Shown piece after piece: positions 5,415 through 58,473 of a stretch of DNA of 64,000 bases. Source of the stretch: Thereva unica (taxonomy: Eukaryota > Arthropoda > Insecta > Diptera > Therevidae). The stretch lies in the NCBI GenBank assembly GCA_949987705.1, contig CATLJY010000036.1, forward strand, positions 124,001 to 188,000. Reading direction: 5' to 3'. The notes beneath the pieces were generated by a model. That model worked only from the letters and a program-made list of their open reading frames with translations, searched no databases and had not been told where the DNA came from. Within the stretch, counting starts at the first letter, position 1; every line of letters starts with the position of its first letter. The position numbers and the translations under genes were made by a program.

Positions 5415-5747
5415 TTAAATCCACCTCAGCCCCTGGAAAAAGGAATTTGGAACCAGCAGAAGAAATCCCCGTTTGGGCGGATCCGTCAACCCCGAAACTT
5501 CAACAATGGCACTCAGCTTTTCCCCAACTTGTATGAAAGATGGGCCCGTAGAGCAAACTTGACTCGACTGTAAAATTGGCCAGAGGTTTGTTCTCTTTGG
5601 CCGGTAGATCACATATCTCAAGATGGCACTCAGCTTTTCCCCAACTTGTATGAAAGATGGGCCCGTAGAGTAAACTTGACCAGATCTGTAAAATTGTAGG
5701 GACAAAAAATAAAAAACTAGTTTAGCGATATATTGGCTTTTATCCAT
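5415..5747 (-). CDS. Unrecognised 110-aa ORF with a 39-residue duplication
   Basis: I do not recognise this protein. The motif STGPSFIQVGEKLSAI occurs twice, 117 bp apart (near 5506-5560 and 5623-5677), and the duplication keeps frame. The ATG lies directly after the stop of the minus-strand BRO-like frame, which suggests either a short following gene or a former C-terminal extension. It abuts the presumed end of element A's LTR, so its own 3' end may have been cut. It is weakly supported as a gene. Confidence 0.3.
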   Translation of the reverse strand: MDKSQYIAKLVFYFLSLQFYRSGQVYSTGPSFIQVGEKLSAILRYVIYRPKRTNLWPILQSSQVCSTGPSFIQVGEKLSAIVEVSGLTDPPKRGFLLLVPNSFFQGLRWI

Positions 5748-6194
5748 CTACAAAGGGCCGGTGTCCCGCGTCCATGGTGGTAGTACTTGATGTCGTTCTT
5801 GGAGCTGGGGCGGCGGGATGTAGGTTCCACCCTTTTCGATTAAAGATATCACATTGTCGAAGACGAAATCGCTATACTTTTTGCAGCCGGCTTTGCGACA
5901 GGGATACGTCAGCACACCTAATAGTGAATGGCGCACAAAAACTGTGTTGGGCAACAGGGTTGCCGGCATATGAGGTCGAATGCTGGGGTCCAGGATTGTC
6001 AGCAGGGCGCCCCATGTGGTCACTGAGAGTTTGTCCCGCTCCAAGCAAACCCAACGCCGGTTGTGGCATTCAAATAGGGGGGCAAATTCTTCTATCGTGA
6101 AAAAAATTTCATAGCCAATCTTGAACGCCCAGCACTCAAATTCGTCATCACCCCACCGAAGAATCTCTCGAGGGCCATCTGTACTTATCGGTTG
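5748..6194 (-). pseudogene. BRO-N-like viral protein, no start codon
   Basis: The minus frame is open from a stop at 6195-6197 to 5748 (149 codons). The N-terminal part carries DDEFECWAFKIGYEIFFTIEEFAPLF, in two runs, which resembles the BRO-N DNA-binding domain of baculovirus repeated ORFs. It also parallels DEFEFKMNNGHLFKCW of the plus-strand gene at 6447. A later part has two cysteines in YPCRKAGCKKYSDF. No in-frame ATG precedes the domain, so the 5' end is lost or frameshifted. BRO proteins bind DNA or nucleosomes in insect-virus infection. The assignment rests on the short N-terminal similarity. Confidence 0.5.
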
Positions 6195-6255
6195 TTAAGT
6201 TTAGACTGATCTCTGTGTGGTGAGCAGTAGCCGCGGTGCCTCTCACCTGTGGTCC

Positions 6256-6420
6256 GGAGGTCTGCACTCGTCGGCGGCTGGATGCAGACTGAGCTATTAT
6301 CGCCTTTTCTACCACCCTGACACGATTTCCCATACAAAAGAGCTTTTTCCTGCAACTCGACTTTATGACCTTTGACCCTTTGCGGGTCGAGTACCTGGAA
6401 ATATATATGGGCTACTATCT
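6256..6420 (+). promoter_or_regulatory. Viral promoter-like repeat, copy 1
   Basis: It shares GTCTGCACTCGTCGGCGG, CATACAAAAGAGCTTTTTCC and GCAACTCGAC with copies at 7422-7554 and 41492-41630. A TATA-rich stretch (about 6400-6410) follows, and the BRO-like ORF starts at 6447. Its placement suggests a promoter or a homologous-region-type enhancer. The order of blocks is kept but the spacing differs from the other two copies. Confidence 0.5.
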
Positions 6421-6446
6421 AGCGGTCGGAGTCAGTCGTAATCAAA

Positions 6447-7103
6447 ATGTCGCTCGATGAGTTTGAATTTAAAATGAACAATGGACACTTGTTCAAGTGC
6501 TGGACATACATATCGCCCGACAAGAAGGTTTGGTATAAATTGAATGAGTTTGCCGGTCAACTGGGGTATGCAGAAATAAAGGGGTCATATAAAATAATCG
6601 ACAAATATTTAAAAATCAGATGGAAAAATCTACCAAATACCAACCGCATTAAAACACCGAAGTAATGGCATCCCGACACGCTGTTTGTATTGGCAGCAGG
6701 CCTCAATACGCTCATTACCAAGTCCAAGATGCCGGCTGCTAGGCTGTTTGGCAAGTGGTTGTGTAGGAAGCTGTTACCCGAGCTGCATCATCAACTCTAT
6801 GTCGAGTATCATGCGACAAACCAAGACACAACAGAATTGGATTTTTTTACGGACGGCGTTTGTACGGGATGTGACATATTTGGCGACATCTAATAATTAC
6901 CGCGCAGAAGGAGCATACCAGATCGGCTTAACCACACAGACCCCCGGATGCGGTTATCAAGCCTTAATAACTCGATGATTGGTAATAACAGACTTGACTT
7001 TTTGCGCCTACGTACACGCTGCATTGAGAGGGAATTTTATAGATTCGAGTCGGCCGAAGAGGCCATACAAATTGTAGATGAACAAATAAATAGATTAAAC
7101 TGA
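6447..7103 (+). pseudogene. bro: BRO-family gene with GIY-YIG-like C-terminus, broken
   Basis: The N-terminal frame (MSLDEFEFKMNN..., VWYKLNEFAGQLGY) looks like the BRO-N domain. An in-frame TAA at 6663 is followed in the same frame by WHPDTLFVLAAG and FGKWLCRKLLPEL, the rest of a BRO-N type region. A neighbouring frame then carries YLATSNNYRAEGAYQIG (about 6875-6930), which resembles the T5orf172/MUG113 GIY-YIG-like C-terminal domain. The first frame resumes with RLSSLNNSMIGNNRLDFL to the stop at 7101. I infer one nonsense mutation and two roughly compensating frameshifts (about 6860-6880 and 6940-6950). The overall size of about 218 codons is small for BRO. A TATA box lies about 40 bp upstream. 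Confidence 0.65.
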
Positions 7104-7159
7104 ATTTTGTGTTTTTTAATTGTATAAACCCCCATTGATAGCTTGTTCTTTGTGCTGAT

Positions 7160-7380
7160 ATTGCAACTCGACCCACTACTGTATTGATGGCACCTGCAAC
7201 TCGACCCACTACTGTATTGATGGCACCTGCAACTCGACCCACTACTGTATTGATGGCACCTGCAACTCGACCCACTACTGTATTGATGGCACCTGCAACT
7301 CGACCCACTACTGCATTGATGGCACCTGCAACTCGACCCACTACTGTATTGATAACACCTGCAACTCGGCCCATCGACAG
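7160..7380 (+). repeat. 33-bp tandem array, about 6.5 copies
   Basis: The unit contains TGCAACTCGACCCACTACTG followed by TATTGATGGCACC. The period of 33 bp keeps frame, so both strands stay open across it. The GCAACTCGAC core also occurs in the promoter-like repeats and, in variant form, in the arrays at 47.3 and 56.6 kb. It resembles a viral homologous region (hr) more than a coding repeat. Confidence 0.85.
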
Positions 7381-7421
7381 TTTGCTCTAGATGTGACGCT
7401 GGCTCGATCTAAAAATGTACC

Positions 7422-7554
7422 AGAGGTCTGCACTCGTCGGCGGTCGCTGCACGACTGAGCATTTTTGTCATTCCGTCACGCGCCTTTAGACATTTTCATA
7501 CAAAAGAGCTTTTCCGGCAACTCGACTATAAATTGAGCTGTGGCTTCGCGCGCG
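7422..7554 (+). promoter_or_regulatory. Viral promoter-like repeat, copy 2 (split by Gypsy B)
   Basis: It is nearly identical to 41492-41630: GTCTGCACTCGTCGGCGG, TTTTTGTCATTCCGTCACGC, CATACAAAAGAGC, GCAACTCGACTATA, and TTCGCGCGCG at the end. The repeat continues at 27716 on the far side of the Gypsy insertion. Its intact relative at 41.5 kb therefore serves as the empty site. Confidence 0.75.
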
Positions 7555-7898
7555 AGTTACGTCAACATTCCAACATGAAAATGATTCCCAGCGACGTTCC
7601 GTAGCATCAGCGTCTACACAGCTCTTTAGTTACAACATTTAATAATTCTCAGAAGCAAAATGTAACATGACGCTGCTACAGAACTTCGCTGTGATTATGA
7701 AGATGCTTGAAGTGCATTTATTTTAAGTTCGAAATTAAAAAGCTTACTGTAAGCATTGATTGTAAAAGTAACCGTCGCGATCTTAAGATCGTTTTCCAAG
7801 TTAAATAAAAGTATATTAATTAAAATTAATATAATTATTTGTTTTATTTCTTTTGATAATTACAAATTCGTTTAATAATAATAAAAATAAACGTAATT
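7555..7898 (+). repeat. 5' LTR of Gypsy B
   Basis: It begins AGTTACGTCAAC and ends AAACGTAATT. It matches 27372-27715 over the full length except for about three substitutions. Confidence 0.95.
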
Positions 7899-7915
7899 GG
7901 CGCAGTCGAGTAGAA
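7898..7915 (+). other. Primer binding site of Gypsy B
   Basis: TGGCGCAGTCGAGTAG starts on the last LTR base. This type of site, ascribed to tRNA-Ser, is known from the 17.6/297 group of errantiviruses. The leader from here to the gag ATG at 8347 is A-rich and holds no gene that I can see. Confidence 0.75.
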
Positions 7916-8346
7916 TGTCTTTACTAAAGTAATCGGCATACGGAAATACGGATTTCTTCTTTGTGTAATAGTGGATCGATTCAGTAATCGAGCAAATTTT
8001 TTATAAAAAAAAGTTCAGTTTTTTGTTGACCTCTTTTTGAAGATTGAGGATAAAAAGAAAGCAATAATAATAAAAATTTGTGGTATCGATAATATAAATA
8101 ATGTTAATTACTGAGAGTGGGGAATAAGAAAATTTATATTGAAAGCGAGAAAATAAAGTGAAGAAGAAATTTTTTTTTTTTTTGATTAAAAATAAAAGCA
8201 TTTTATTACTAAATAATAATAGTGAAGAAAAAAAAAGATAATATATAAAAGCAAAGTGGTGCTTAAAAAATAAAAAAAAATATATATAAGTTTATGAAAA
8301 AAAAAAACAAAAAAGCTAAAGAATTTAAAAAAAAAAACAACAAAAC

Positions 8347-9225
8347 ATGGCAACAGAAGCTCCACCATTTGCATTTTCCACGACCGAGCTCATTAAGGAA
8401 GCCCAACGAATTAGGGAATTTAATGGAGATGGAACTTATGCCTTAAGTTCATTTCTGAGAGAAGTTGACATCATCCTCCCATTATTTGACAATCAACCAC
8501 TGGTCAAACAATACCTTTTCTCGAGAACCATCATCAATAAAATACAAGGACTAGCGCTGGATGTTATAAGAACCTTGGGAACGGAAGTAACATGGGATGA
8601 AATCAAAGCCGAACTGATCAACAATTTTGGAGTCAGGGAAACTTACCACCAACTCTACCATCAGGCCATATCCTTAAGGAATTTTAATGTAAGAAATTAT
8701 TTTACTAGTTTGATATCTATATTAGCTAGGCTTAACGAAAAGTTCGAATATGACTCTAATAAACCAATGGAATTTTCCCCAAAATCAAACGAATCAATTA
8801 TATTAAGAACTTTTTTAGATAATTTAGATCCACATTTAAGTTCAGTGATTTTAAGTAGAAATATAACTACCCTACGTGACGCATTCAATATTTTAGATAG
8901 TTCGGGATTAATAAAAGATAGACATATATCATATTCGAAACCAAGTCAATATTCACTTAATAAAAATAAAAATTACCATACTAACCAACAGCCTACATTC
9001 AGGCAAAGTAGCTCTCAAAATTTCCGACAACATAATTCTTGGAATTCAAACCGATTCAGAAACCCTAATTACCAAGCTCACTCAAATCAAATAAGGCAAA
9101 GCCCACATAATTATCGGAATAATTCAGAACAAACGAGACGAACTCAGTCTCAACCTATGGATGTCGACCATTTTGATAATGAAGTAAATTTTCGGGCAAT
9201 GCCCACAAAACTAATCTACCGGTAG
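8347..9225 (+). CDS. gag: Gag of Gypsy/errantivirus B
   Basis: This 292-aa protein follows the long A-rich leader and has no CCHC zinc knuckle, as expected for errantivirus gag. The N-terminal two thirds read like the Drosophila-type errantivirus capsid region (FSTTELIKEAQRIREFNGDG at the start). The C-terminal third is rich in Asn, Gln, Arg and His (NSWNSNRFRNPNYQ) and likely binds RNA. It would form the particle shell. The frame is intact and ends just before the protease frame. Confidence 0.88.
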   Translation: MATEAPPFAFSTTELIKEAQRIREFNGDGTYALSSFLREVDIILPLFDNQPLVKQYLFSRTIINKIQGLALDVIRTLGTEVTWDEIKAELINNFGVRETYHQLYHQAISLRNFNVRNYFTSLISILARLNEKFEYDSNKPMEFSPKSNESIILRTFLDNLDPHLSSVILSRNITTLRDAFNILDSSGLIKDRHISYSKPSQYSLNKNKNYHTNQQPTFRQSSSQNFRQHNSWNSNRFRNPNYQAHSNQIRQSPHNYRNNSEQTRRTQSQPMDVDHFDNEVNFRAMPTKLIYR

Positions 9226-9870
9226 TAGAATTAACAATCGATGATAATAAAATAAAATGTCTTATTGATACCGGATCCTCTACCACTCTACTCAACGAAA
9301 AGAAATTATGTATTAAAATATAAAAGAATACTTCTGCGAACCCCTCTTAGATTTAAAACCTTAAACTCAACTACATCTGTTAATAAAGAAATCGTAACTA
9401 GCCTCCCTGTTGAATTCAATGAAGTCGCCGATATGGCATGGAAATTAACTAGATTTCATAAGAAAAATTTTGACGGTATTATTGGCCAAAATTTGTTAAA
9501 ACCATTAGGCGCAATTATCGACATGGGTAAAGACACATTAACAATAAACAAAAACAAAATGAAATTTCTTTATAAATGTCCATATGATGAAGAAGTAATC
9601 CACCAGCTCGAACATTCAGAGTTAGACGAGAACATAAATACAAGTCTTTTTAAAAATTTAAACACACAAGAAAGTATAGAGTTAGAAAATTTGCTGAAAA
9701 CATACAAAAGGTTGTTTATTAGAGAAGGCGAAGTACTAACACATACCAACGAAGTCAAACATGTCATAATCACAACTACAGATAGGTCGATTCGAAAATC
9801 TATCGCTATCCACAGATACATGAACAGGAGATTACGAAACAGATTAATGAAATGCTCAAAAATGGAATAA
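9226..9870 (+). pseudogene. pol: Pol of Gypsy B, protease and start of RT, frameshifted
   Basis: The aspartic protease core CLIDTGSSTTLL is readable near 9258-9295, but that frame stops at about 9322. A different frame (9265-9870) carries the downstream protease part, FDGIIGQNLLKPLGAIIDMG, and the linker to RT. A second shift is needed near 9800 to join the RT frame: the sequence around QEITKQINEML is read in the frame of the next ORF. Two frameshifts therefore disable pol in this copy. Confidence 0.85.
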
Positions 9871-12704
9871 TAAAAGAAAGTAATTCTCCATATAACAGCC
9901 CTCTTTGGATTGTCCCGAAGAAAATGGACAATTCGGGTAAGAAAAAATGGAGAATAGTGGTGGATTATAGAAAATTAAACGGAGTGACAATCGACGATAA
10001 ATACCCGATCCCCAATATTGAAAATATTCTGGACAAACTTGGGAGAGCCCAATACTTTACAACCGTCGACCTGGCGAAAGGCTTCCATCAGATACTGGTC
10101 AACGAAAATGACACGAAAAAGACAGCCTTCTCCACGCCAAATGGTCATTATGAATTCGTGAGAATGCCATTTGGGCTTAAAAATGCCCCGGCAACTTTTC
10201 AACGCTTAATGAACTCAATCTTGAGAGATTTTATAAATAAAATCTGCGTGGTGTATATGGACGATATACTTATTTTTTCGACATCCCTTGAAGAGCACAT
10301 AGATAACATTAAAAAGATTTTCAATAGATTGGAGGCAGCAAACTTAAAAATACAGATAGAGAAGTGCAGTTTTTTATCAAAGGAAACCGAATATTTAGGA
10401 CATATCCTTACCCCCGAAGGAGTAAGACCCAACCCAAACAAGATTGAAACCATAACAAAATTACAACTACCAAAAACACAGAAGCAAATCAAATCGTTCC
10501 TGGGAATAACCGGCTTTTATAGAAAATTTGTGAAAGACTATGCAAAAGTAGCCCAGCCTTTAACCAAATATTTAAAAAAAAATATGAAAGTGAACATCGA
10601 AGATCCCAACTATATAAATGCATTCGAAAAATTGAAAAACTTAATCACTCAATCTCCGGTCCTGAAATATCCCGATTTTTCCAAAAAATTTAAGTTAATC
10701 ACTGATGCTAGCGCCTATGCAATTGGAGCTGTCTTGCAGCAAGACAGCCACCCAGTGTGCTATGCTAGCCGAACATTAAACCAACATGAAATTAACTATT
10801 CAACAACAGAAAAGGAGTTAGTCGCAATGGTTTGGGCAACAAACTATTTCCGACCTTATCTCTATGGAAAAAAATTTGACCTTCTCACAGATCACCAGCC
10901 TTTAAAATGGCTACATACAAAAACCAGCGGAAAAGATTCAAACCCCCGATTATATAGATGGATGCTTAAACTCGGTGAATACAACATTAATATAGATTAC
11001 ATCAAAAGAAGAGAAAATAAAGTCGCTGATTTTCTCAGTCGGATTAATACGGACAGGAACGAAATCAACCATAATGAAGAAGAAAGGGATAATTCAACGA
11101 ACAACTCAAATATTTCTATGCAAAACCATTCAGATTCGTCCGAGCAACAAACGATCCATTCTCAAGAAGAGGATCTCAATAATCATATCCCTATCTTGGA
11201 TACGGTAGTCAATCGCTTTAAAACACAATTAATACTTACAGACAACAAGGAAAAGGACGACGAAATAAAGAATGGAAATAGAAAAATCTACATTAATACA
11301 GAAGATATAAACAATAATTTGACGGACATCTTAAGAAGATATATCAAGCCAGGAAAAATTGGAATATTTACAGAATTAGATGATCATAAGTATAACCTAG
11401 TGCAGAACAAAATTATTGAATTATTTGATGGAAATTCCCCAATAAAACTTGTTCGATGTTCACATCATGCAAAAGACATGAAAGACGAAAATGAAACTTA
11501 TAAAGAAATACACCGATATCATAAAAATGAATCTGGGCATTCAGGGATCAATAATAATTCTGAAAGCCTTAAAAAATTAATATATTTTCCGAAATTAAAA
11601 ATCTTAGTACATAAATATATAAATAATTGTGACATTTGCAACAAAACCAAATATGATCGTAATCCTATTAAAGAAAAATTTAAATTAACGGAAACACCAA
11701 CGGACATAAAGCAGATTATCCACATGGATATATACACAAACTCGAAAAGTAATTTTTTAACATTTATTGATCGGTTTTCAAAATTCGCCACCGCTTATTA
11801 CCTCGAGGACAGAAATAATCAAACGATTATAGAAAAAATTAGACACTATAAATCGCAAAGAGGACACTTTTTAAAACTTATAACAGATAATGAATTCAAA
11901 AGTATTAACATAAAAGACTTTTTAAGAAATGAACGAATTGAGCTGCATTTGGTCAAACCAAATAATCATACAGGTAATGCAGATATCGAGAGATTGCATA
12001 ATACCTTGAGTGAAAAAATCAGGATTTTGGGAATGGAACAGAAGGAATTAAATATTAAAGAAAAAATAGCCAAAGCTATTGAGTGGTATAATAACAATCT
12101 TCATTCCACTATTAAGGAAAGGCCAATAAATGTTCTAGAAGGCAAATGCGATAAAAATTTTATACTACATAATTTAAGTAAAGAAAAAGAAAGATATATA
12201 AACAAAAGAAATTTAAAACGGGAAACTTACACCGAGAATCGGTCCCAAGGATATATAAAAAACTATAAAAGCGTTAGGCATAAGGAACAACCAAAATTTA
12301 TCAAACATAAACTAGAAAATATCCATTCAAAAAACATTAAACGTAAAAATAAATTTTCAGGTGAACTGATCCTCAAAATATTCCTGATGAGCATACTGAT
12401 GATAACAACCCAGGCCCATCTTGTAGTGCAGAAAATAGAAACTAATGCGGGATACACTGAAATAAAATTGGGAAAAGCTGAAGTCGTTGTAAATTACAAT
12501 ATAATCTTACATATAGTAAACCCTTCCGAAATTAAAAATATAATAGATCAATTAGAAACTAATTTACTACAAATAGAATTACATCAGATTAAGAAATCTA
12601 TACTTCAACATGAAATTAAAGCCCTTAAAACTAAGCTCAAACTACTGGTTCCACACCGCCATGAAAGAGGATTATTAAATTTTATAGGTACGATTCACAA
12701 ATGA
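9852..12704 (+). CDS. pol: Gypsy B pol (RT, RNase H, integrase) running into env
   Basis: This 950-aa frame holds RT with TTVDLAKGFHQI and active site VYMDDILIF, RNase H (LITDASAYAIGAVL, LLTDHQPLKWL), an integrase zinc-binding region (HRYHKNESGHSG, NCDICNKTK), and an integrase core from HMDIYTNSK and ITDNEFKS onward. A splice-acceptor-like TTTTCAG at about 12354-12360 is followed by a hydrophobic stretch, LKIFLMSILMITTQA, which looks like the env signal peptide. Pol thus runs into env without a stop. The errantivirus env is normally made from a spliced RNA. The frame ends at an in-frame TGA inside env. Confidence 0.9.
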   Translation: MLKNGIIKESNSPYNSPLWIVPKKMDNSGKKKWRIVVDYRKLNGVTIDDKYPIPNIENILDKLGRAQYFTTVDLAKGFHQILVNENDTKKTAFSTPNGHYEFVRMPFGLKNAPATFQRLMNSILRDFINKICVVYMDDILIFSTSLEEHIDNIKKIFNRLEAANLKIQIEKCSFLSKETEYLGHILTPEGVRPNPNKIETITKLQLPKTQKQIKSFLGITGFYRKFVKDYAKVAQPLTKYLKKNMKVNIEDPNYINAFEKLKNLITQSPVLKYPDFSKKFKLITDASAYAIGAVLQQDSHPVCYASRTLNQHEINYSTTEKELVAMVWATNYFRPYLYGKKFDLLTDHQPLKWLHTKTSGKDSNPRLYRWMLKLGEYNINIDYIKRRENKVADFLSRINTDRNEINHNEEERDNSTNNSNISMQNHSDSSEQQTIHSQEEDLNNHIPILDTVVNRFKTQLILTDNKEKDDEIKNGNRKIYINTEDINNNLTDILRRYIKPGKIGIFTELDDHKYNLVQNKIIELFDGNSPIKLVRCSHHAKDMKDENETYKEIHRYHKNESGHSGINNNSESLKKLIYFPKLKILVHKYINNCDICNKTKYDRNPIKEKFKLTETPTDIKQIIHMDIYTNSKSNFLTFIDRFSKFATAYYLEDRNNQTIIEKIRHYKSQRGHFLKLITDNEFKSINIKDFLRNERIELHLVKPNNHTGNADIERLHNTLSEKIRILGMEQKELNIKEKIAKAIEWYNNNLHSTIKERPINVLEGKCDKNFILHNLSKEKERYINKRNLKRETYTENRSQGYIKNYKSVRHKEQPKFIKHKLENIHSKNIKRKNKFSGELILKIFLMSILMITTQAHLVVQKIETNAGYTEIKLGKAEVVVNYNIILHIVNPSEIKNIIDQLETNLLQIELHQIKKSILQHEIKALKTKLKLLVPHRHERGLLNFIGTIHK

Positions 12705-13124
12705 TACGGCACAATGGATAATCAAGATAGAGAAGAAATAGAAAGTCATTTAAATATAATCGATACAAATAACCACAATATAATTAGCAATGTCAATCAA
12801 CAAATAAAAATAAATACTAACTTTAATCAAACTTTCATTAAACTGAAAAATATTATCGAAAAAGATAGAGAAGCTATAGCAGCAAACCTAAATCAAATTG
12901 CTTCAGACAATAGAAAAATATATACTCAAGTGACTTACATTGACTATGTACTTAAATTGAAAATTCTTTCTGACAACATAGAACACATCCAAGAAAATAT
13001 TGCGTCATCTAGGTTAGGTATATTGCACAGCAACATATTAACTAGCAAAGAAATAGAAGAATATAAGATAGATTTACAAAAATTTAGGAATATTAAATTG
13101 ACAAACCAATTAAAAATAAATTAA
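12361..13124 (+). pseudogene. env: Errantivirus env, N-terminal part, broken
   Basis: The reading frame carries a signal-peptide-like start, a basic RHER cleavage-like site and a conserved fusion-peptide-like stretch GLLNFIG. An in-frame TGA (about 12702-12704) then interrupts it, and the same frame resumes to 13124. The end comes from the LTR of element D, which is inserted after codons for FRNIKL. The type matches the baculovirus-F-like Env of errantiviruses, a membrane fusion protein. The copy is non-functional through both the stop and the insertion. Confidence 0.85.
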
Positions 13125-13431
13125 AATAAAGAAATTACCTTTTTTCATATCCTACTCGCAATGTCTAAACAAAACAAACTGGATGTGTCAAAATAATGAC
13201 ATGCGAGTAAGTATTAAAATATGGAAAGCGTCAAAGCGTCAATATCGTAATTTAGTACATACGATATATATATGGAAAGCGAAAACGTAGGAAAGCATCA
13301 TTAAGAATTACGCTCTAGTTTTGAGCAATTTTACCCCCACCTAGCCTCGATATCCAGCAACAAGAATTTGGCGAAGGATACGAGGCTCGGAGGCAGATAT
13401 CAAAAATTTAATCTTCTCTGGACATCCGCCG
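13100..13431 (+). repeat. 5' LTR of element D, first part
   Basis: It matches 24517-25267 once the MITE there is removed. It continues after element C at 19490. The first 16 bases of the 3' LTR (24501-24516) have no counterpart here. Confidence 0.88.
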
Positions 13432-14674
13432 TGTCGCGTCTCCAAAGACGCGAAAATCTGAAAAAGTTAAAAACAACAACAACAACAACATGAAAATAAA
13501 AACAATCAAAATTACACCGCAAAAAAGAACTTTATTTTCGAAAAAAAACACAAAATTAGACACTTAAAATACACTAAAAAATATGAACCTGCAAATAAAA
13601 TCATTAGTAATAATAAAGTAAATCAAATAATTACCTTGAAAATTCCACCGCCGCAAAATCGCAAAACCCCGTCGGCAAATCTACAAGAAAGCAAAATTAA
13701 TCAACAGAAAAAACAAGATCCACAAAATACTTACCCGCCAACACTGACGTCCAAAACTCCGCCTCCCAAAATTCCCACCATCATAAATCATCTGAAAATA
13801 CATAAATGTGGATAAATTAATAATAGAAAATATATCAGCGAAAACTATGTATACTTACCCACAATAATACTTCAATTTGACAGAAGAAGAAGAGAAAGAG
13901 ACGATCAGCTGTTTGAGTGGCTCCATGAACCAAATTGTATACTTCGAAATTCGAAATTCAAGGTTCCCCACCAATTTCAGGGCAAAATAAATATCGGCGC
14001 ACAGTCCGCGTCAAACTCAGATCATTTTTGGTCTTTAAGTGCGCTGAAGCTTAAAGACTTCTAGGAAAAATTGAGCTTGAAGTTTTTCCTATCGAAACAG
14101 TGATCTCACCCAACCCAAAAGGAGATCGAGTTGAACTCTCCTTAATATATACAAGGATCTATTGACGCGACAAGTCAATATCCACGAAAACTGCGTTGAA
14201 GGTTTTCGCCCATACCCCATACGAGATCCGCTAACGAGACTGAGTTAGCATCTCGGACCCACAGAGGTCTCTAATCAAAGCATTATCATTACAGAGTAAA
14301 GGCAGAAACTGTCACCCAGAAACCCAGCGGAAGGCATCCACGACGAAAAAGCTCCACTGTGCACGTTATTTGATGCAAGGCGTACGAATTAAAGTCCCAG
14401 AGTGATTATTCATTAGAATTTTATTAAAGATTGAATTTTAGAGTCATTTTAGTAGAGATTGAATTGTTAGTCATTTTTGAATTTGAGAGTTATTGCATTA
14501 AAGATTGAATTTGGTTACAGAGTAAAGATTTATTGAAGTAAACATTAAAAATTGTTACATATTTTCGAAGTTTTGAATTAAATTTGTTAAGCTGAAACAA
14601 CTACACTTTTATTTGAATCACACCCTACCGGCACCCCCCTCATTTAGTCAGGATTAAATTGCTAATTCTGAACA
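13432..14674 (+). repeat. 5' LTR of element C
   Basis: 1243 bp, matching 18262-19489 with a few small indels and substitutions. It opens with a palindrome-like CGCGTCTCCAAAGACGCG and holds a (CAA)n run near 13475. Confidence 0.95.
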
Positions 14675-14675
14675 T

Positions 14676-14693
14676 TGGTCCTTCGAGCCGGAT
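14676..14693 (+). other. Primer binding site of element C
   Basis: TGGTCCTTCGAGCCGGAT lies one base after the LTR. The same site occurs in D and F, and a one-base variant in E, so it is the common Pao primer site here. The priming tRNA was not determined. Confidence 0.85.
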
Positions 14694-14729
14694 AGTGATT
14701 CAAACAAAGTAAAGGTTACATAAATCAGC

Positions 14730-17700
14730 ATGGATGCCCTAATCGCGCAACAACACGAAGTTCGAGATAGACTCGAAAGGTCTTACCGAAATTATCTAAA
14801 AGATGGTCCATCCAGGAAAACGGAGCAGTATTTTCGAAAGAAACTCAAGGTACTCGACGACGACTGGGCAGAATTTAAGAATAATCATCGGCAGATCACA
14901 TCAATAAAAACGAAAAAGGATGAAAATGAACATCTGTATTTTAAGGAAGATTGGTATATCGACACCGAACAAGCGTACATCGACATGTCCTCCAAAATCG
15001 AGGAAGATTATCACAAAACTCTTCCAGTCGCAGATCCAGCCGCAAGAGCCGAGCAGTCATTCACAGAACTAAACAGCAGCCACATCTCCCATCACAACAA
15101 TGATGTAAAACTTCCGCGAATTTCAATCCCGACATTCGCCGGAGACTATGCATCATGGCCATCATTCTTCGATCTCTTCTCCAGCCTCGTCCACAATAAG
15201 GCATCACTCTCAGGAGCCCAAAAATTACAATACCTCAAAGCGCATTTATCCGGAGAAGCATTGAGACTTATCAGCAATACGTTAATAAGCGACGCTAATT
15301 ATGAACCAGCATGGAAGCTGCTCATCGAGAACTACGACAATAAACGAGCATTACTCAAAACTCAACTCGATATGCTACTCAATCAACCCAAACTAACTAG
15401 AGAAACTGCGCATGGAATCAAAGAGTTAAAAACAAGGACTCACGAATGCCTCACCGCCATAGAGAATCTGGAGATCTCCACTAAGAATTGGGATCCCATT
15501 CTCATACACGTACTCGTCCAGAAGCTACCCGCAGAAACGCACGAATTATGGGAGCAATCCCAAAGCAACAAATCAAACCGATCAATACCCACTTGGTCAG
15601 AATTACGCGAATTTCTAGAGACTCGGTTTAGAACTCTAGAAGCCATTAGTAACCCGGTCAACAGCAAAAATGATCGCTACGAAACTCAGCCAAAGGATCA
15701 TTCAAAGCGAAGAACACAAGCATTTCACGTAACAAGTCATATCGCGTGTAACATATGTAAAGGTCCGCACGTCATCAGAAAATGCCCAAAGTATTCACAA
15801 CTAAACATAAACGAACGATATAAACTAGCTAAGTCCAAGGATCTTTGCATCAACTGCCTAGGATCAAGCCACCGTGTGTCCCAATGTCCTAGCAACAACC
15901 GATGTTTTCAATGTGGAGGAATGCACCATACTTCCCTCCATAGGACTCAACAGGAGAGTCAACCCAGTAGCAACAAGGATACGTCAATTATCGAAACCCC
16001 GATCTCCCAGGCCAGCACACATCTGTCCCAGGCATATCCACATGAAAACCAACAGGTTCTACTAGCTACAGCCCTGGTCACGGTAATATCACCGACAGGT
16101 CGACGACAGGTATGCAGAGCATTGATCGACCCAGGGTCTCAATCTACATTTGTGCGAGAGTCAGTTGTCCAAAATCTACGACTTAAGCGAGAATCCACAC
16201 AAACTTCAATAACCGTACTTGGAAGCATGCCAGCCGGAGAAATGACGAATAAGGTCACGCTACAGCTACAGTCAAGAACTCAGCCACCCAAAGCCATCCA
16301 AGCACAGGCCTTCGTCCTCACCGAAATCACTCAGCCTCAACCAAACAGGGAATGCTCAAGCAGAAACTGGACATACCTGGAAGGACTCCAATTAGCAGAT
16401 CCAACCTTCCACCAGCCAGGCCATATAGACATCCTCTTGGGAGCAGACGTATATTCGGATATCATCATGGACGGCCTGAGAAAAGGCCCAGATGGAACAA
16501 CAGTAAGCCAAAACACAATATTTGGCTGGATCATCTCGGGAAACACAAATTCAGACACCACACTGGGACAACGCAAGAACATAACCAACTTGCATGTGCA
16601 CACCAGCCCCACAGACACCAGCATGTTAAACGATTATTCATCTTTAACAAAACTACTTCGGGTCACAGCGTATTGCCGCCGATGGCTGGAATTACTCAAA
16701 CCAAAATCGCACAGATCAAAAACTACATACTTAACAGCAAGCGAAATTCAAAAGGCTTTAACACATTGGATAAGAGTCACACAGGAAATGGAATTTAAAG
16801 ACGAAATCCTGATGCTGAAATCCAACCAAGCCATATCCAACAAAAGCAGACTTTTGAGGCTAACCCCATTCCTAAACCAAGAAGGAATCCTGAGAGTAGG
16901 AGGTCGTCTCCAGAACGCAGACATACCATTCACGACACGCCATCCCATTATTCTACCAGAAAAGGCAACACTAACCAAGTTAATCATAGACGATACTCAT
17001 AAAGCCACAATGCATGGCGGAACTCAATTAATGCTCAACACTCTCAGACAAAAGTATTGGATCATCCACGCAAGAAATGCTGTCAGATCGCACAATCATA
17101 AATGCATGCCATGCTTTCGACAACTTGCAGCAGGACGAACTCAACTCATGGGCAATCTTCCGGCGGTCCGAATCCGCCCTGCTAGACCTTTTACGCACAC
17201 TGGCGTCGACTATTGTGGTCCATTCAATCTACGACTATCCAAAACACGCGGAGCCAGAACACAAAAGGGATACATCTCGCTTTTCATCTGCATGGTTACC
17301 AAAGCCATACACCTAGAAGTCGTCACGGATGCATCAACGGAAGGTTTCCTCACCACATTTCGACGGTTCACTGCAAGACGAGGATTGTGCTCAGATATCT
17401 ACAGTGACTGCGGATCCAACTTCGTGGGAGCAAACAACCTGCTCACGCGATACAAAATTACAGCCAATAAAACATTGGAAGCAAAATTAGCCGAAGCTAT
17501 GGAAAACCAGGGAACCAAATGGCATTTCATTCCACCAGCCTCACCCCATTTTGGAGGCCTTTGGGAAAGCGGAGTGAAATCAGTCAAATACCACCTGAAA
17601 CGAACCATAGGAGAAGCATCCCTAACATATGAAGAGTTCAGCACACTCACCACGCAGATTGAAGCCGCACTAAATTCCAGGCCAATCACAGAATTATCTC

Positions 17701-18107: not shown

Positions 18108-18261
18108 AATCAACCAAGTAATGAAGGCACTTCCGCCAAGCAACTATCACAGACCCCAATAAAAAAGCCCAGTAAAAATGAAGTGTTCTTATTTAAAAAA
18201 CCTCAAGTACTTCACAATCTCACCTTAAATTTGAAGCTAAGCGCTTCAAGGCGGGGGAGAA

Positions 18262-20895: not shown

Positions 20896-20896
20896 T

Positions 20897-27840: not shown

Positions 27841-27845
27841 TCGGG

Positions 27846-52640: not shown

Positions 52641-53478
52641 TAAGGGTGGGTACATGTAGGTGTGCAGAAGACAACAGAGTAAGACTTCAGCCCCGATACA
52701 AATGAGTAAAAACTAAAAAATGAAAACTTTATCATTTCAAAAAAAAGAGAACTAAGCTAAACAAAATTAAAATAAGAAGAATAAGAAGAAATTTGACTTA
52801 TCTATTAAAAATTTGAAAAATTAATATATATTTATATTTATATATATTTGTTAAAGATAGAGCTCCTTTGCTCTAACTGTAAGAGGTAGTCAAAGTGAAG
52901 CACCTTGACTTATTGTTGCGTGTGCACAGGTACTTGAACCTGTACACTAAATCGTGATTATAAGTAGATCAAATGTTAAGGATAGAGATCCTTTGCTCTA
53001 ACTGTAGTCAAAGTGAAGCACCTTGACTTATTGTTGTGTGTGCACAAGTACTTGAACCTGTACACTCAATCGCTGTGCCTCAAGCAGACTCTCCTGAGAT
53101 AGAAATAAAAGTCTTAATTTCACAGTGATTGATCACTAATAAACTCTCTCTTTATTAATCAACCTTCCATTTATATATACAAGAATTGCTTAAATAAACA
53201 ATAATTAAAAAAGGTGCAAGCATTTAAGGTTCATTGATCATTTAAAGTTCATTGCTTACAATTTTGCTGATGGCGCAAGAATCTACAATTATACTAAAGT
53301 GAAAATGTACTTTAATTTTACTGATCGTGCAATTAAATTTATTAAAGGTAATGACCGATGGAAAAATGCAGTGTAATGAATTTATGACAAGGTGTGCAAG
53401 TTTTCTTAATGTTTACGTTTTATTCAAATAATTAAAACTAGAATCTAATCTAATGGCTTATGTTCTAACAATATTTAT
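52641..53478. repeat. AT-rich region with a 125-bp direct duplication
   Basis: 52850-52974 and 52975-53090 are near-copies (GTTAAAGATAGAGCTCCTTT / GTTAAGGATAGAGATCCTTT, TGTGCACAGGTACTTGAACC). The stretch TTAAAGTTCATTGCTTACA then TGGCGCAAGA near 53250-53280 could be an LTR end and primer site, but no partner LTR is in the window. No gene is seen. Confidence 0.4.
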
Positions 53479-53952
53479 TTAAAGCTTAAGGGATCCAATA
53501 ATTTTAAGTGGTACAAATGACTTATCTACTAGTTTTACTTTAACAAAATAAAAAAATTGGCAAATGATTTCGGAATTATTAAACTCTTCCTTAGGTATAA
53601 GTATTGCGTGGGTCATCTCTATGTTTTTAGATGGCGATATGCAAAGGTCCACGTTGTCCTTGTGCAAGATCATATCACAGTAGGGCGAGAAGAGTATGTA
53701 GTGGGTACAGTCCCTGTTGGTTGTTTCAATGTAGCACTGTAGGTCCGATATCTTTTCGCGCGATGAAGGCAGCCGGGAGTACTTGGAGGCGCAGGTGAAG
53801 TAGTGTAGACAAAACGCAGATTGCGGGAATGTAAAAATTCGGGCACGCGTGTTATTGCGAATTTTGTTGATGTTTTTCTCTTCCCTTTTATCTATGTGGC
53901 AGCTAAATATTCGGCCACCCCTGTCTTTTTGGTGGTCATAAATTTGTTTGCT
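53479..53952 (-). pseudogene. Cys-containing viral ORF without a start, likely C-terminus of the 466-aa protein
   Basis: 158 open codons after a TGA at 53953-53955, with no ATG before 53673. It has motifs GRIFSCHIDKREE, FCLHYFTCASKYSRLP, DLQCYIETTNRDCTHYILF and a hydrophobic-basic end. It overlaps the end of the Ser-rich frame by 17 bases in another phase, so a single frameshift near 53940-53955 would make it the folded C-terminal domain of that protein. The alternative is a separate gene that has lost its start. Confidence 0.5.
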
Positions 53953-55381
53953 TCATCTGATTCGCGTCCTGTATGTAGATATCGGTGGTGGTTTCATCAT
54001 TGATATTTGGTTGCGGATTCCTTGAATCGAGGATGTTTACCTTACGAAGGTGAGCACACAGCCGAATTTCCTTACCCGCTTCATTATTTAATCTGGGGGC
54101 GCCCTTTATAAATGAGTCTGGATATACGATACCCATATTAAAGATATTGGCAGCGTCGTCACTTGTGGGGGTGGTGGGCGGCGGAATCATCTTGGACGCC
54201 TTCTTTAGCATCTTTTTGGGCATGTACTTGGATGGATGGAAGATCCTTGGCCGTTCTCTCCTTCTTTTCGGCGGCGATTCTGGTTCAGATTCATCCTCCG
54301 AGCTCGAGGAATTTCTAATGGTGATCGGCGATGTACTGGATCCATCAGGTGTCTTGGTGGTTTGGCTTGGTGACGCAGGTGATTCTTCATCGCTGCTGCT
54401 GGAGCTCGAGTCCGGAAATAAAGGGCTCCCTGAACGCATATTGTGCTGCTTGTAGATGCGGCTCATATGCTTCCTGGAACGTTTTGGCATAGGTGAAGTT
54501 TTTGGCTCAATTGCATCAGTCTCACTCGATTCATGGCACACTACCCTTATGGGAACCTTATTTTTTCGTCTTTTTAGCACTTTTACAACTGGCTGCGGCG
54601 ATTGCTCTACTTTCGGCGATGGCAAGGGCTCCACTTCAGTAGGCAGGAGATCATTAATTATTTGGTCCAAATTATTAAACTCGGACACTATTGTAAAATT
54701 TAAATGATCACAAATATTTTCCAGAATATCGAAATCGTCGGTAAAAACAATTTGCCCTTTTTGCGGCGCACACTGTGAGGAAGAAGGATGCTGCTGCTCC
54801 TGTAGGTTCTTCTGCTGCTCCTGGATGATGTGGTGCAGATCCGGTACACAGGACGTCTCCAGGGGCCGCGAGTGAATCTGCTGCTCCTGTAGGATCTTCT
54901 GCTGCTCCTGGATGATGTGGTGCAGATCCGGCACACAGGGCGTCTCCAGGGGCCGCGAGTGAATCTGCTGCTCCTGTAGGATCTTCTGCTGCTCCTGGAT
55001 GATGTGGTGCAGATCCGGCACACAGGGCGTCTCCAGGGGCCGCGAGTAGAAATCAGGACTCGGCGAACACTGTTGTTGGGGGGAAAACTCCTGCGGCGAA
55101 AACCCTATATACGGCGACTGGTTGTAGGACATCGTAAATGGGGTCACTGGCTGGACGTCGGGTTGGTAAATTGTATTAAAAACTGATTGCTCGTAGTATT
55201 GCTGGGGCGTATTAAACGCTGGCGAACCGTCCTGACGATACATTATACGCGGGATAACTGCGGGCAACCCGGCACTATGCGACTGAACTAAATTATCGCT
55301 ATTATAAATGAATAATTCCCAACTTGATCTGGGCAACTTGCGGGAACAACCACCTTTGCCCGTGATCTTGGCTGGACGAAC
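53936..55381 (-). pseudogene. Ser/Pro/Gln-rich viral repeat protein
   Basis: The 466-codon frame (open to 55381, but with no ATG before residue about 32) has an N-terminal Gln/Pro/Tyr-rich part and three tandem copies of a 28-29-residue unit (RPLETPCVPDLHHIIQEQQK, coiled-coil-like, 54780-55040). It then has basic clusters (KVLKRRKNK, KRSRKHMSRIYK), a Ser/Asp/Glu tract (SSSSSSDEE) and another basic cluster (PPKRRRERPRIF). This resembles a disordered nuclear or tegument-like protein. A function is not recognised. The start is uncertain (TTG at 55336) and the end is probably frameshifted. Confidence 0.55.
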
Positions 55382-55407
55382 TATTTAACGCGATGTGCTA
55401 CGGCCTT

Positions 55408-56324
55408 TTATTTGGGCACGCAATTTTGGACGAATCCCACGAACCGCTTGTATGGGTGCGATTTGTTATTGTTTTTAATCACGACTGATCCCTGATCCCT
55501 GTTGATAACTTCGGTGGTGTTGGTGCCGATAAACTTTAACTCGGAGTTGATGAGTTGCATTTTATTATCAGCGGAAGTGGTGGAGGTCCTATCGGGTGGT
55601 ATGGTGACAATCTTGCCCTCGGAGTTGATGAGTTGCATTTTATTATCAGCGGAAGTGGTGGGGGTCCTATCGGGTGGCATGGTGACAATCTTGCCCTCGG
55701 AGTTGATGAGTTGCATTTTATTATCAGCGGAAGTGGTGGGGGTCCTATCGGGTGGTATGGTGACAATCCTGCCCGCCGTTAGATCTACTGTTAAAAAGTT
55801 TTCCTGCTGTACACTGCATGTGCCATAAAATTCCTTCAACTCTAGATTATCGCTAAAAACAACGAGGAAATTTTTTTCATATAAATCTGAGAGATTGTGT
55901 GGTCTTGAGAATAATCACCAAACACGACCGAGATTAGGTGCTTGTGTTTGATGTTTAGGAAATGGATCATGTTCGACAGTTCCGGCGACTCGTAGATGAC
56001 TCTCGTGCTCTTATTCCGCACGTAGCAATCGGTGCTGGCCACATAGAACCTAGCATAATCGGCCAATATAGCATTTTCGGAGCCCGGTGCCAATATATAG
56101 AGATTCATATTGATTGGAATGGGTTGCGGGTTTACCGCGGCCATGTAAAATATCTGAAATGTATCCTCGTCATCGCCCCCGGCCGCCGCCTTGATGCTGG
56201 CCGTGGTGTCGATGGTGGCAGCGGTGGGAGATCGCGTTTCGATGAAAATTGCCACATATATTAATTGAATTACAAACAATGCTAGCAGGGCTGACAGGAT
56301 ATTTACAATAATGTTGCATCTCAT
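55408..56324 (-). pseudogene. Membrane-anchored viral protein with 26-residue repeats, A-run frameshift
   Basis: The ATG at 56324 has GTAAG shortly upstream. The N terminus has a single membrane segment (IIVNILSALLALFVIQLIYV). An extracellular-type domain follows, with two or more cysteines (STDCYVRNKSTRVIYE) up to IYMKKI. There the run of seven A at about 55873-55879 shifts the frame; one more A would lead into FLVVFSDNLELKEFYG of the next frame. That frame carries three copies of a 26-residue unit (IVTMPPDRTPTTSADNKMQL) and ends at 55408. The signal-anchor layout recalls small PIF or envelope proteins, but no family is recognised. Confidence 0.6.
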
Positions 56325-56333
56325 AGTTGTTTG

Positions 56334-56338
56334 CTTAC
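56334..56338 (-). promoter_or_regulatory. TAAG motif before the membrane-anchored gene
   Basis: GTAAG reads toward the gene, about nine bases before the ATG at 56324. Confidence 0.4.
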
Positions 56339-56576
56339 AATCGTCGCAAATCCGCCATCGCGGACGTACCGATTCTCAAATATGTTTTTTCTCTTGCATT
56401 TCTTGCAGCGCGTCTTGGGTGGGCAATAATCGCACAAAAAATATGTGCAGCGACCACTATAGATGGCACCCATGTGCACATTCCTTAATAAGTAATTAAA
56501 TTGTATATTCAAGTTTTTATATTTTGAATATTATAATTTAGACATTCGCAGCGAATATTATTGTTAAAAATATAAC

Positions 56577-57580
56577 TAGATCGACAGAGTCGCAACATTG
56601 TATGAAAAGCCCGGCGAGGCGATAAGGCCGGTCGAGTCGCCCACGCGCATCCTTCGGAGCCGCGCTATCTGGAGTGGTCCGTATCACGTTGCAATCTAGA
56701 GTGACCCATCAACAAACAAGGCACTTCTTTCAACGTGACCCATTTAGCGATAAGACCAGCGAATATTATTGTTAAAAAATATAACTAGATCGACAGAGTC
56801 GCAACATTGTATGAAAAGCCCGGCGAGGCGATAAGGCCGGTCGAGTCGCCCACACGCATCCTTCGGAGCCGCGTGGTCCGTATCACGTTGCAATCTAGAG
56901 GTGACCCATCAGCAAACAAGGCACTTCTTTCAACGTGACCCATTTAGCGATAAGACCAGCGAATATTATTGTTAAAAAATATAACTAGATCGACAGAGTC
57001 GCAACATTGTATGAAAAGCCCGGCGAGGCGATAAGGCCGGTCGAGTCGCCCACACGCATCCTTCGGAGCCGCGCTATCTGGAGTGGTCCGTATCACGTTG
57101 CAATCTAGAGGTGACCCATCAACAAACAAGGCACTTCTTTCAACGTGGCCCATTTGGCGATAAGACCGGCCGAGTCGCAACAAGCGGCGGCGAGGCGATA
57201 AGGCCGGTCGAGCCGCGCGAAATCTGGAGTGTTCCGTTTCACATTACAATCTAGAGGTGACCCATCAACAAACAACGATAGGAACGCTCGAGTTGCAATT
57301 AATTGCCCTCAGCTTCCACTCGAGTGGTGATAGCTATAATCTAGAGGTGACCCATCAACAAACAAGGCACTTCTTTCAAAGTGGCCCATTTGGCGATAAG
57401 ACCACCCGAGTCGCAACAAGCGGCGGCGAGGCGATAAGGCCGGTCGAGTCGCGCGCTATCTGGAGTGGTCCGTTTCACATTACCATCAACAAACAACGAT
57501 AAGAACGCTCGAGTTGCAATTAATTGCTCTCAGCTTCCTCTCGAGTGGTGCTAGCTACAATCTAGAGGTGACCCATCACG
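56577..57580. repeat. Viral homologous-region-like repeats, block 2
   Basis: Three long units of about 200-209 bp start at about 56581, 56790 and 56990 (TCGACAGAGTCGCAACATTG ... AATATTATTGTTAAAAAATA). Shorter shuffled units follow to 57580. Sub-motifs include GGCGATAAGGCCGGTCGAGTCGC and CTAGAGGTGACCCATCAACA. All short ORFs over it are artefacts of the repeat. It recalls baculovirus hrs, which serve as enhancers and origins. Confidence 0.75.
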
Positions 57581-57840
57581 TTGACGGCCATCTCGATGCC
57601 CGTTTCGGGGCTAGCGAGCGCCTTCAGAAACGCGTTCACCCGCTTCTCGGTGCTTGCTGCCACAGTGCCCCGCTCATCAGCTTCTTCCGGCAACTCGAGC
57701 TTGGCCCGCAAATGCCGGCGTATCAAATCGACCGCCTCGTACTCGTCAAACTCGCGCCGGCCCTGCGGCAGGTTGGATTTGCTCGACCTGGAGCGACATA
57801 TGCATGCGCGCAGAGGTCGCCGTGATAGTGCGACTGCCAC
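57562..57840 (-). pseudogene. Possible viral coding remnant cut by the repeat block
   Basis: A minus frame, G/C-rich at third positions, with FDEYEAVDLIRRHLRAKLEL and STEKRVNAFLKALASPETGI. It ends in a stop created within repeat sequence (GTGACCCATCA), so its 3' end is not native. The family is not recognised. Opposite frames are also open here, so coding is uncertain. Confidence 0.3.
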
Positions 57841-58022
57841 AGTTTAACCTGGCTATCGAGCTAGATTTGGAGCCCATCATGCGAAAGCTGGGCGTATCGG
57901 CCATCCTTGAGCCCGGCAGCGAGTCCGAGTCGGTCATCGTCAGCAAGATGATGCACACTACGCAACAAGCTATTTCTATTGTTGTTAGAGATAGGAAAAC
58001 TGTATTTTTTTTGCCGCTTTGA
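57804..58022 (+). pseudogene. Serpin-like fragment
   Basis: The frame reads MRAEVAVIVRLPQFNLAIEL, then DLEPIMRKLGVSAIL and VIVSKMMHTTQQAISI. These match in order the serpin blocks V-LP-F---DL---L--LGV, the following insert, and SK--H-----. It lacks the N-terminal two thirds and the reactive-centre loop, ending in a stop at 58020-58022. Serpins inhibit serine proteases, often immune cascades, when viral. Here it is only a remnant. The assignment is by eye and moderate. Confidence 0.5.
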
Positions 58023-58209
58023 TATCCCGTTGTAAATAAATGCTGGGGAGAATTGAATCACTTTCTAGTGGGTGAATGCATCCATCCTTTAAAAATTTGG
58101 CATCGATATCGAAAATGATACTCGTCAGTTTTGCGACTTTCTTTGCGCTAGATAACACGTCGTGTCGGTTAATTTACTAAATTTTTCAAATTTTTAAAAT
58201 TATTCAAAA

Positions 58210-58464
58210 ATGAATTCTCGTGAGTTTTATCGTTTAATCGATAGCAGAGATATGCTATTAGAATATTTAATTAGACTAAAAGTGATCCGAAATGAGCTTA
58301 TCTGCTTCCAATGTGGCTCTGAGATGCATTTTTCACGCGATACGTTGCTGTTCAACGTCCCGGTGAACAACCCGTTGCTGCAACCATCAAATGTTCAACG
58401 TCCCAATTCAACAGTGAACAACCCGTGGCTGCAACCATCAGCAAGTACGAAGAACAATAATTAG
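58210..58464 (+). CDS. Short ORF with zinc-ribbon-like start, transposase-like
   Basis: MNSREFYRLIDSRDMLLEYL, then IRNELICFQCGSEM resembles the N terminus of Merlin/ISXO2-type transposases: a short helix pair, then CxxCG. The second CxxC of the ribbon and the DDE domain are absent. The last 40 codons are a low-complexity duplication (NVPVNNPLLQPS / NSTVNNPWLQPS). It ends just before the inferred LTR of element F. It could be a captured or truncated fragment. Confidence 0.35.
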   Translation: MNSREFYRLIDSRDMLLEYLIRLKVIRNELICFQCGSEMHFSRDTLLFNVPVNNPLLQPSNVQRPNSTVNNPWLQPSASTKNNN

Positions 58465-58473
58465 GTCAACCAA

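What the first reader, a model, noticed from the sequence alone, without database searches (positions are those of the whole stretch)
5415..58470. An endogenized, decaying large dsDNA insect virus, cut up by transposons
Between the transposons the window repeatedly returns to DNA with viral content: pif-5, BRO-like genes, thymidylate kinase, matrix metalloprotease, subtilase, serpin remnant, tightly packed overlapping genes, hr-like arrays and TAAG motifs at starts. The mix does not match one lineage that I can name. PIF-5 and TAAG point to the baculovirus/nudivirus/filamentous/hytrosavirus group. Many transposon insertions within it show residence in a nuclear genome for some time.
Basis: partly seen in the sequence, partly recalled or inferred. 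Interest (0 to 1): 0.9.

Follow-up and report, generated by a model that had tools for sequence, protein, structure and literature searches.

The report
Viral fossil cut up by transposons
What look like pieces of a large insect-type DNA virus lie broken in a chromosome, with mobile elements inserted into at least two of the genes; similar fossils of bee- and ant-virus relatives are already known from ant genomes, so this is probably one more of a known kind.

Summary
The core of the finding holds. About 14.7 kb of the 64 kb are virus-like islands (GC 0.50, rest 0.39) between transposons, three of which I delimited by exact target-site duplications inside the islands. Pfam finds thymidylate kinase and M10 metalloprotease clearly, a subtilase end at its cut-off, BRO-N in two pieces under the cut-off, a serpin end weakly. 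TAAG lies within 20 nt upstream of 5 of 9 start codons, against 21 of 516 ATGs in the islands. The M10 gene and an unnamed membrane-protein gene are split, codon phase kept, by a hAT-like and a BEL element. By my reading 11 of 14 delimited virus-like genes are broken, while seven transposon frames of 595-1775 codons are open. So: an endogenous viral element, not an episome. The pif-5 call is not confirmed: no piece matches Baculo_E56. Lineage is unproven; AmFV and the ant labial gland disease viruses are the nearest published kinds by resemblance. Relatives could not be compared: homologue database off, genome search did not complete (16 tries). Ordinary in kind, with an unusual protease mix.

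The parts
5391..7554 (.). Virus-like island A: unassigned frame 5751-6194 (-), BRO-N gene with an in-frame stop, 33-bp tandem array 7162-7373, copies of a dispersed non-coding repeat
6423..6890 (+). BRO-N domain gene in two pieces (6423-6662 and 6666-6890) separated by a stop; first ATG 6447
   Evidence: PF02498 in both pieces, adjoining profile parts 2-51 and 59-96, both below the curated cut-off
7555..27715 (+). Gypsy-type (errantivirus-like) LTR element, TSD CGCG, inserted in a dispersed repeat of the virus-like island; BEL elements nested inside it
   Evidence: TSD and ends; LTR identity 98.85%; RT, RNase H and integrase zinc domains; diverged uninterrupted copy of the target at 41491-41722
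27720..30752 (.). Virus-like island B: thymidylate kinase piece, frame B2, 47-bp array 28993-29209, PIF-5-like gene, second part of C1
27816..28202 (+). Thymidylate kinase piece, lacking the N-terminal P-loop region; frame breaks near its 3' end (my reading)
   Evidence: PF02223 E 1.9e-15; solved thymidylate kinases; frames
28337..28979 (-). Frame B2, unknown; likely start 28979 with TAAG upstream; frame break near the start
   Evidence: no Pfam match; NCBIfam only a row far below its cut-off
29424..30472 (-). PIF-5-like gene in three pieces (one frame break, one in-frame stop); a strong TM-like stretch near the C-end, cysteines; TAAG upstream of 30472. Identity not confirmed
   Evidence: Pieces searched apart, no Pfam; two pieces searched for solved relatives, none significant; hydrophobicity; TAAG
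30753..39300 (+). BEL/Pao element, TSD ATCTC, inserted in frame C1
   Evidence: LTRs 99.89% identical; PF05380 E 3.1e-52
30626..30752 (-). Second part of C1 (TM-like stretch), in phase with 39640-39301
39301..39640 (-). First part of C1, an unnamed membrane-protein gene cut by the BEL element; first ATG 39640 with TAAG upstream
   Evidence: no significant Pfam match
39703..40876 (+). Gene C2, unknown, frame break near 40.5 kb
   Evidence: Frames; no Pfam
40816..41475 (+). Subtilase C-terminal remnant, frame breaks, N-terminus missing
   Evidence: PF00082 E 1e-4, profile 224-262 of 288; frames
41793..41926 (-). Second half of the M10 metalloprotease
   Evidence: PF00413 profile 121-158, below cut-off; phase kept
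41927..42708 (.). hAT-like non-autonomous element with 279-bp inverted repeat, TSD CCCCAAGA, inside the M10 gene
42709..43161 (-). First half of the M10 metalloprotease with an N-terminal TM-like stretch; TAAG upstream of 43161
   Evidence: PF00413 E 4.9e-12
43166..43278 (.). 29-bp tandem array (hr-like) between M10 and D1
43299..43535 (+). Frame D1, 79 aa, open, unknown
43558..45277 (+). Gene D2: signal-peptide-like start, then a frame break, then an open frame of 560 codons (43598-45277), unknown
   Evidence: no significant Pfam, PDB or IMG/VR relative
46215..46718 (-). Frame E, 168 aa, with 21-residue in-frame repeats, open, unknown; assigned to the virus by composition only
53470..56510 (-). 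Island F: tightly packed frames on one strand (F1 56473-56324, F2 from 56324, frame 55914-55411, 482-codon frame 55384-53939, frame 53952-53482)
57615..58019 (+). Serpin-like remnant, weak
   Evidence: PF00079 E 2.6e-3, below cut-off

Best explanation
A stretch of the genome of a large nuclear insect-type dsDNA virus with baculovirus-type late promoters (most likely of the pif-bearing class Naldaviricetes, near the bee and ant filamentous viruses) became part of a host chromosome. It very likely has no viral function now. Its genes, left without selection, gained frame breaks and stops, and host transposons (a gypsy-type element, a BEL element, a hAT-like element and others) landed in it, two of them inside virus-like genes. 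Shown here: the virus-type genes, the inserts with target-site duplications, the kept codon phase across two inserts, and thereby that islands A to D were once one stretch. My reading of frames: the decay. Inferred: that islands E to G belong to the same integration, the virus class, the germline route (a viral integrase or host end-joining) and lack of expression.
For: Virus-type gene set BRO-N, M10, thymidylate kinase, subtilase. TAAG within 20 nt of 5 of 9 starts against 21 of 516 ATGs, hypergeometric P 7.7e-6 (7 of 11 if two starts picked with the motif in view are kept). Cover by stop-free frames of 100 codons or more is above all of 200 shuffles in islands A, B, C, D and F. Island GC 0.495 against 0.392 for the rest. 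TSDs CGCG, ATCTC, CCCCAAGA and the same codon phase on both sides of the BEL insert and of the hAT-like insert. By my reading 11 of 14 delimited virus-like genes are broken, while 7 transposon frames of 595-1775 codons are open, which argues against sequencing error as the cause.
Against: No Naldaviricetes core gene is confirmed: the PIF-5-like pieces match no profile. No relative was found in IMG/VR in 6 protein scans and 2 repeat patterns. The two structure models were too poor to use. In one search the frame cover of E and G was reached by 6 and 11 of 200 shuffles, and the longest frame of A, B, E and G by 34, 21, 17 and 13 of 200; only C, D and F exceed all shuffles on both measures; the LINE stretch also exceeds its shuffles, so frame cover is not special to virus DNA. 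Transposon frames are not all whole: the gypsy-type pol lies in overlapping frames, two BEL frames lack domains, and the LINE is cut. Islands E, F and G are linked to A-D only by composition and neighbourhood. I saw no host gene, and read depth was not available.
Confidence: 0.85

Rival explanations
1. A narrower form of the best explanation: an endogenous element of the AmFV / ant labial gland disease virus (LGDV) clade in an ant or related hymenopteran.
For: CjLGDV has GC 52%, 17 tandem direct repeats and three BRO genes, and LGDV-related EVEs lie in 36 of 60 ant species, among them a 100-kb C. floridanus scaffold with stops and transposons (PMC12548425). AmFV has GC 50.8%, at least six BRO genes and two M10 metalloproteases (PMC4517127).
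Against: No sequence comparison with either virus was possible. The main text of PMC12548425 holds no occurrence of metalloprotease, thymidylate or subtilisin (its supplements were not available). The host is unknown.
Confidence: 0.5
2. The other narrower form: an endogenous element of another pif-bearing lineage (nudivirus, hytrosavirus, Filamentoviridae, nimavirus) or of an unnamed one.
For: TAAG starts, BRO-N and thymidylate kinase are not confined to AmFV and LGDV (recalled); two betabaculovirus genome papers hold the terms thymidylate kinase, metalloproteinase and pif-5 (search listing only).
Against: Endogenous majaniviruses have GC 27-42%, pemoniviruses 43-48%, and both sit at telomere repeats (PMC10871703, passages); no tandem TTAGG on either strand is in the window. 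The upper pemonivirus GC is close to that of some islands, so GC alone does not exclude them.
Confidence: 0.35
3. A replicating virus genome that carries recent transposon insertions.
For: A few viral genomes are known to contain transposons (passage in PMC10259472); the LTR elements here are young (LTR identity 98.4-99.9%).
Against: About 49 of 64 kb is not virus-like, elements are nested in elements, and 11 of 14 virus-like genes are broken as I read them.
Confidence: 0.03
4. Not viral: host or transposon-borne genes (for example a large DNA transposon with captured proteases).
For: M10, subtilase, serpin and thymidylate kinase also exist as host genes (recalled); no core viral gene is confirmed.
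Against: BRO-N, close packing with an ATGA overlap, and TAAG starts shared by unrelated genes.
Confidence: 0.1

Closest known systems
[quoted passage not shown] abstract and parts 1-4 of 8 read, plus passages)
   Same: Broken viral genes, transposons among them, GC near 50% in the free viruses, BRO genes and tandem repeats
   Different: The words metalloprotease, thymidylate and subtilisin do not occur in that paper's main text; no sequence comparison made; host here unknown
Apis mellifera filamentous virus (PMC4517127; abstract and section 12 read)
   Same: GC 50.8%, BRO genes and two M10 metalloproteases
   Different: A free virus of about 498 kb; its Table 1 lists thymidylate synthase, not thymidylate kinase, and no subtilase or serpin
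Hymenopteran dsDNA-virus EVEs: Harpegnathos, Pseudomyrmex, Aphaenogaster (PMC10259472, passages; PMC6540820, passages)
   Same: Fragments of AmFV-like viruses in ant genomes, with transposons on the scaffolds
   Different: Those were recognised by genes such as pif-1, pif-2, pif-3 and p74; none of the frames that I scanned here matched these families
Endogenous nimaviruses of crustaceans (PMC10871703, passages)
   Same: Large DNA viruses of the pif class resident in host genomes
   Different: GC 27-48% in the two groups seen; telomere-repeat or microsatellite target sites; no tandem TTAGG here

Membership tests
Endogenous viral element | Host transposons inserted in viral genes with target-site duplications | tested here: met
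   BEL in C1 (ATCTC) and hAT-like in M10 (CCCCAAGA), phase kept; gypsy-type element in a non-coding repeat of the island (CGCG)
Endogenous viral element | Premature stops or frame breaks in viral genes | tested here: met
   (frames read by eye); seven open transposon frames as a partial control
Endogenous viral element | Host genes in flank, host-like read depth | not testable with these tools
   No host gene seen in the window; no reads; the genome search did not answer in 16 tries
Class Naldaviricetes | Core genes pif-0, 1, 2, 3, 5, DNA polymerase, p33 | tested here: inconclusive
   Only a PIF-5-like gene was noticed and it matches no profile; the rest of the genome could not be searched
Class Naldaviricetes | Baculovirus-type TAAG late promoter motif (supporting, not defining; recalled) | tested here: met
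   5 of 9 starts against 21 of 516 ATGs
AmFV / LGDV clade | Closest relationship of shared genes to AmFV, AmFLV, CjLGDV or AgLGDV | not testable with these tools
   Homologue search switched off; no such sequences on hand; IMG/VR scans found no relatives
AmFV / LGDV clade | GC near 50%, BRO genes, M10 (AmFV), tandem repeats | tested here: met
   Island GC 0.495; resemblance only, and BRO-N pieces are under the cut-off
Baculo_E56 (PIF-5) | Match to PF04639 | tested here: not met
   Three pieces searched apart; a split gene scores lower, so absence is weak evidence

The most novel reading that the evidence does not exclude
The islands stem from an undescribed family of pif-class filamentous viruses with its own set of proteases and inhibitors (M10, subtilase, perhaps serpin) and a thymidylate kinase, distinct from both AmFV and the ant viruses and known only from this fossil.
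Probability: 0.2. Interest if true: 0.65.

Novelty: new member of a known kind. Interest (0 to 1): 0.4.

Why it matters
Such fossils record past infections by viruses that have not been isolated, extend their gene lists (here several genes without relatives in the libraries searched) and can give minimum ages through the LTR elements that landed in them. The two clean in-gene insertions make integration directly testable by PCR.

Tried and rejected
Pfam, NCBIfam and PHROGs on the unnamed frames: only rows far below cut-offs or chance-like. Structure models of the 560-codon frame and of the middle PIF-5-like piece: mean pLDDT 32 and 35, too poor; the BFVD searches made with them gave 0 matches at E <= 0.001 and were not used. 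Solved-structure searches of two PIF-5-like pieces and the 560-codon frame: nothing significant. IMG/VR scans: no relatives. Rfam at gathering thresholds: 0 matches. The 279-bp inverted repeat was considered as a viral inverted repeat like those of AgLGDV and rejected: it belongs to the hAT-like insert with a TSD. Telomeric target: no doubled TTAGG on either strand; three other repeat kinds were looked for on the plus strand only. A recalled likeness of the end of the 560-codon frame to a DUF family was not borne out (no match). Two start coordinates were wrong and were corrected. Island ends are up to 6 bases off the insert ends fixed. Paper some searches failed; their questions were asked in other words.
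Full report
What is there. The window is a patchwork of transposons with virus-like islands between them. The transposon frames are BEL/Pao-like (124-4833, 14724-18104, 20996-24295, 32767-38091, 59142-63998), one gypsy-type pol frame (9786-12701) and one LINE-type reverse transcriptase (47974-49758, minus strand), by Pfam. Seven islands that I set by eye (5391-7550, 27720-30746, 39302-41931, 42712-45300, 45990-46760, 53470-56510, 57574-58070) hold 14,715 bases at GC 0.495; the other 49,285 bases have GC 0.392. In islands A, B, C, D and F the cover by stop-free frames of 100 codons or more exceeds all of 200 Markov shuffles each; for E and G 6 and 11 of 200 shuffles reach it. On the longest single frame only C, D and F exceed all shuffles; A, B, E and G are reached by 34, 21, 17 and 13 of 200. 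The LINE/hAT stretch also exceeds its shuffles, as coding transposon DNA should.

Genes. A thymidylate kinase piece matches PF02223 (E 1.9e-15) and 12 distinct PDB sequences but starts after the P-loop region. An M10 metalloprotease matches PF00413 with its first half (E 4.9e-12; 54 distinct PDB sequences at E <= 0.001, best 6.3e-6) and, apart and below cut-off, with its second half (19.1 bits). A subtilase end is at its cut-off (22.1 bits against 21.8). BRO-N is present in two adjoining pieces parted by a stop, each under the cut-off of 25.6 bits (20.5 and 25.3). A serpin end is weak (17.5 bits against 27). Frames B2, C1, C2, D1, D2, E and the cluster F match no family convincingly. The gene read as pif-5 lies at 30472-29424 on the minus strand in three pieces; none matches Baculo_E56 or anything else in Pfam. 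It has a strong TM-like stretch near its C-end and several cysteines, which fits PIF-5 as I recall it, but that is no test.

Promoters. Of nine start codons taken as the first ATG of their frame, five have TAAG within 20 nt upstream; of all 516 ATGs in the islands 21 do (hypergeometric P 7.7e-6). With two more starts that I picked with the motif in view it is 7 of 11. The frames were picked by eye and after a list of TAAG positions, so P is a guide. TAAG is the baculovirus late-promoter core (recalled). The four of nine without it are BRO, C2, D1 and E. The paper on LGDVs does not mention TAAG.

Endogenisation. Three inserts in the islands have exact target-site duplications: a gypsy-type element 7555-27715 (CGCG), a BEL element 30753-39300 (ATCTC) and a hAT-like inverted-repeat element 41927-42708 (CCCCAAGA). 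The gypsy-type element sits in a dispersed repeat, of which a diverged uninterrupted copy lies at 41491-41722 in another island. The BEL element splits C1 and the hAT-like one splits the M10 gene; in both the open frames on the two sides are in the same phase (coordinate arithmetic only; the phase alone would agree by chance once in three). A further hAT-like element (50022-52338, TSD AGTCGAGT) lies in the LINE region, and a BEL is nested in the LTR of another BEL. Four LTR pairs are 98.4-99.9% identical, so these insertions are young; I give no age because no rate was tested.

Decay. By my reading of the frames, of 14 virus-like genes that I could delimit 11 are broken: BRO (stop), thymidylate kinase (5' loss, frame break), B2, PIF-5-like (frame break and stop), C1 (BEL), C2, subtilase, M10 (hAT-like), D2, F2 (probable) and the serpin remnant. 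D1, E and F1 are open. The frames 5751-6194, 55914-55411, 55384-53939 and 53952-53482 were left out of this count because their ends are unclear. In the same assembly seven transposon frames of 595 to 1775 codons are open, so poor base calling is not the likely cause. The control is partial: the gypsy-type element's genes lie in several overlapping frames, two BEL frames lack domains and the LINE is cut by a hAT-like element.

Mechanism. Best reading: a virus genome segment entered the germline, lost selection and collected transposons. Islands A to D were one stretch of about 10 kb before the three inserts with TSDs that lie exactly between them; E, F and G are joined to them only by composition and neighbourhood. 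How it entered is not shown; LGDVs and the AmFV-like EVEs of Harpegnathos carry integrase genes (PMC12548425; PMC10259472); among the frames that I scanned outside the transposons no integrase matched.

Comparison. Ant genomes are known to hold EVEs of AmFV- and LGDV-like viruses: 1,844 candidate loci in 36 of 60 species, 1,378 loci in Harpegnathos, and a 100-kb C. floridanus scaffold with stops and transposons (PMC12548425); earlier reports are PMC10259472 and PMC6540820 (passages). AmFV has GC 50.8%, BRO genes and two M10 proteases. A paper search for two or more of Naldaviricetes, metalloprotease, thymidylate kinase and subtilisin found 1,151 papers; of the 15 listed one, a review of mixed baculovirus infections (PMC10534452), holds three of the terms once each and was not read. 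A search for hytrosaviruses with matrix metalloproteinase listed two house-fly papers, not read. I therefore make no claim that this gene set is absent from print.

Verdict. Real, correctly seen in outline, ordinary in kind: a new member of the known group of endogenous large insect DNA viruses. The pif-5 claim stays open.

Noticed in passing
41491-41722; 7424-7554 with 27716-27833; 6258-6366: Dispersed non-coding repeat, three copies, in the window found only in virus-like islands; may be a viral hr or a small mobile element.
   Followed up: partly
47301-47692 and 56549-57578: A second GC-rich non-coding repeat array on both sides of the stretch with the LINE, the second hAT-like element and island F, perhaps one array split by insertions.
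   Followed up: partly
14724-18104 and 20996-24295: Two BEL frames are open but lack the Pao peptidase and reverse transcriptase matches seen in other BEL frames: probably internal deletion derivatives.
   Followed up: no
50022-52338: hAT-like element with 8-bp TSD AGTCGAGT inside the LINE region.
   Followed up: partly
46366-46670, 54791-55047, 55540-55774: Tandem repeats with periods 63, 87 and 78 inside open frames, all multiples of three: repetitive proteins.
   Followed up: no
58198-58461: Short frame with a near-threshold CCHC zinc knuckle, perhaps a transposon gag remnant.
   Followed up: no
56321-56324: ATGA stop-start overlap of a 50-codon cysteine-rich frame with the next gene.
   Followed up: yes
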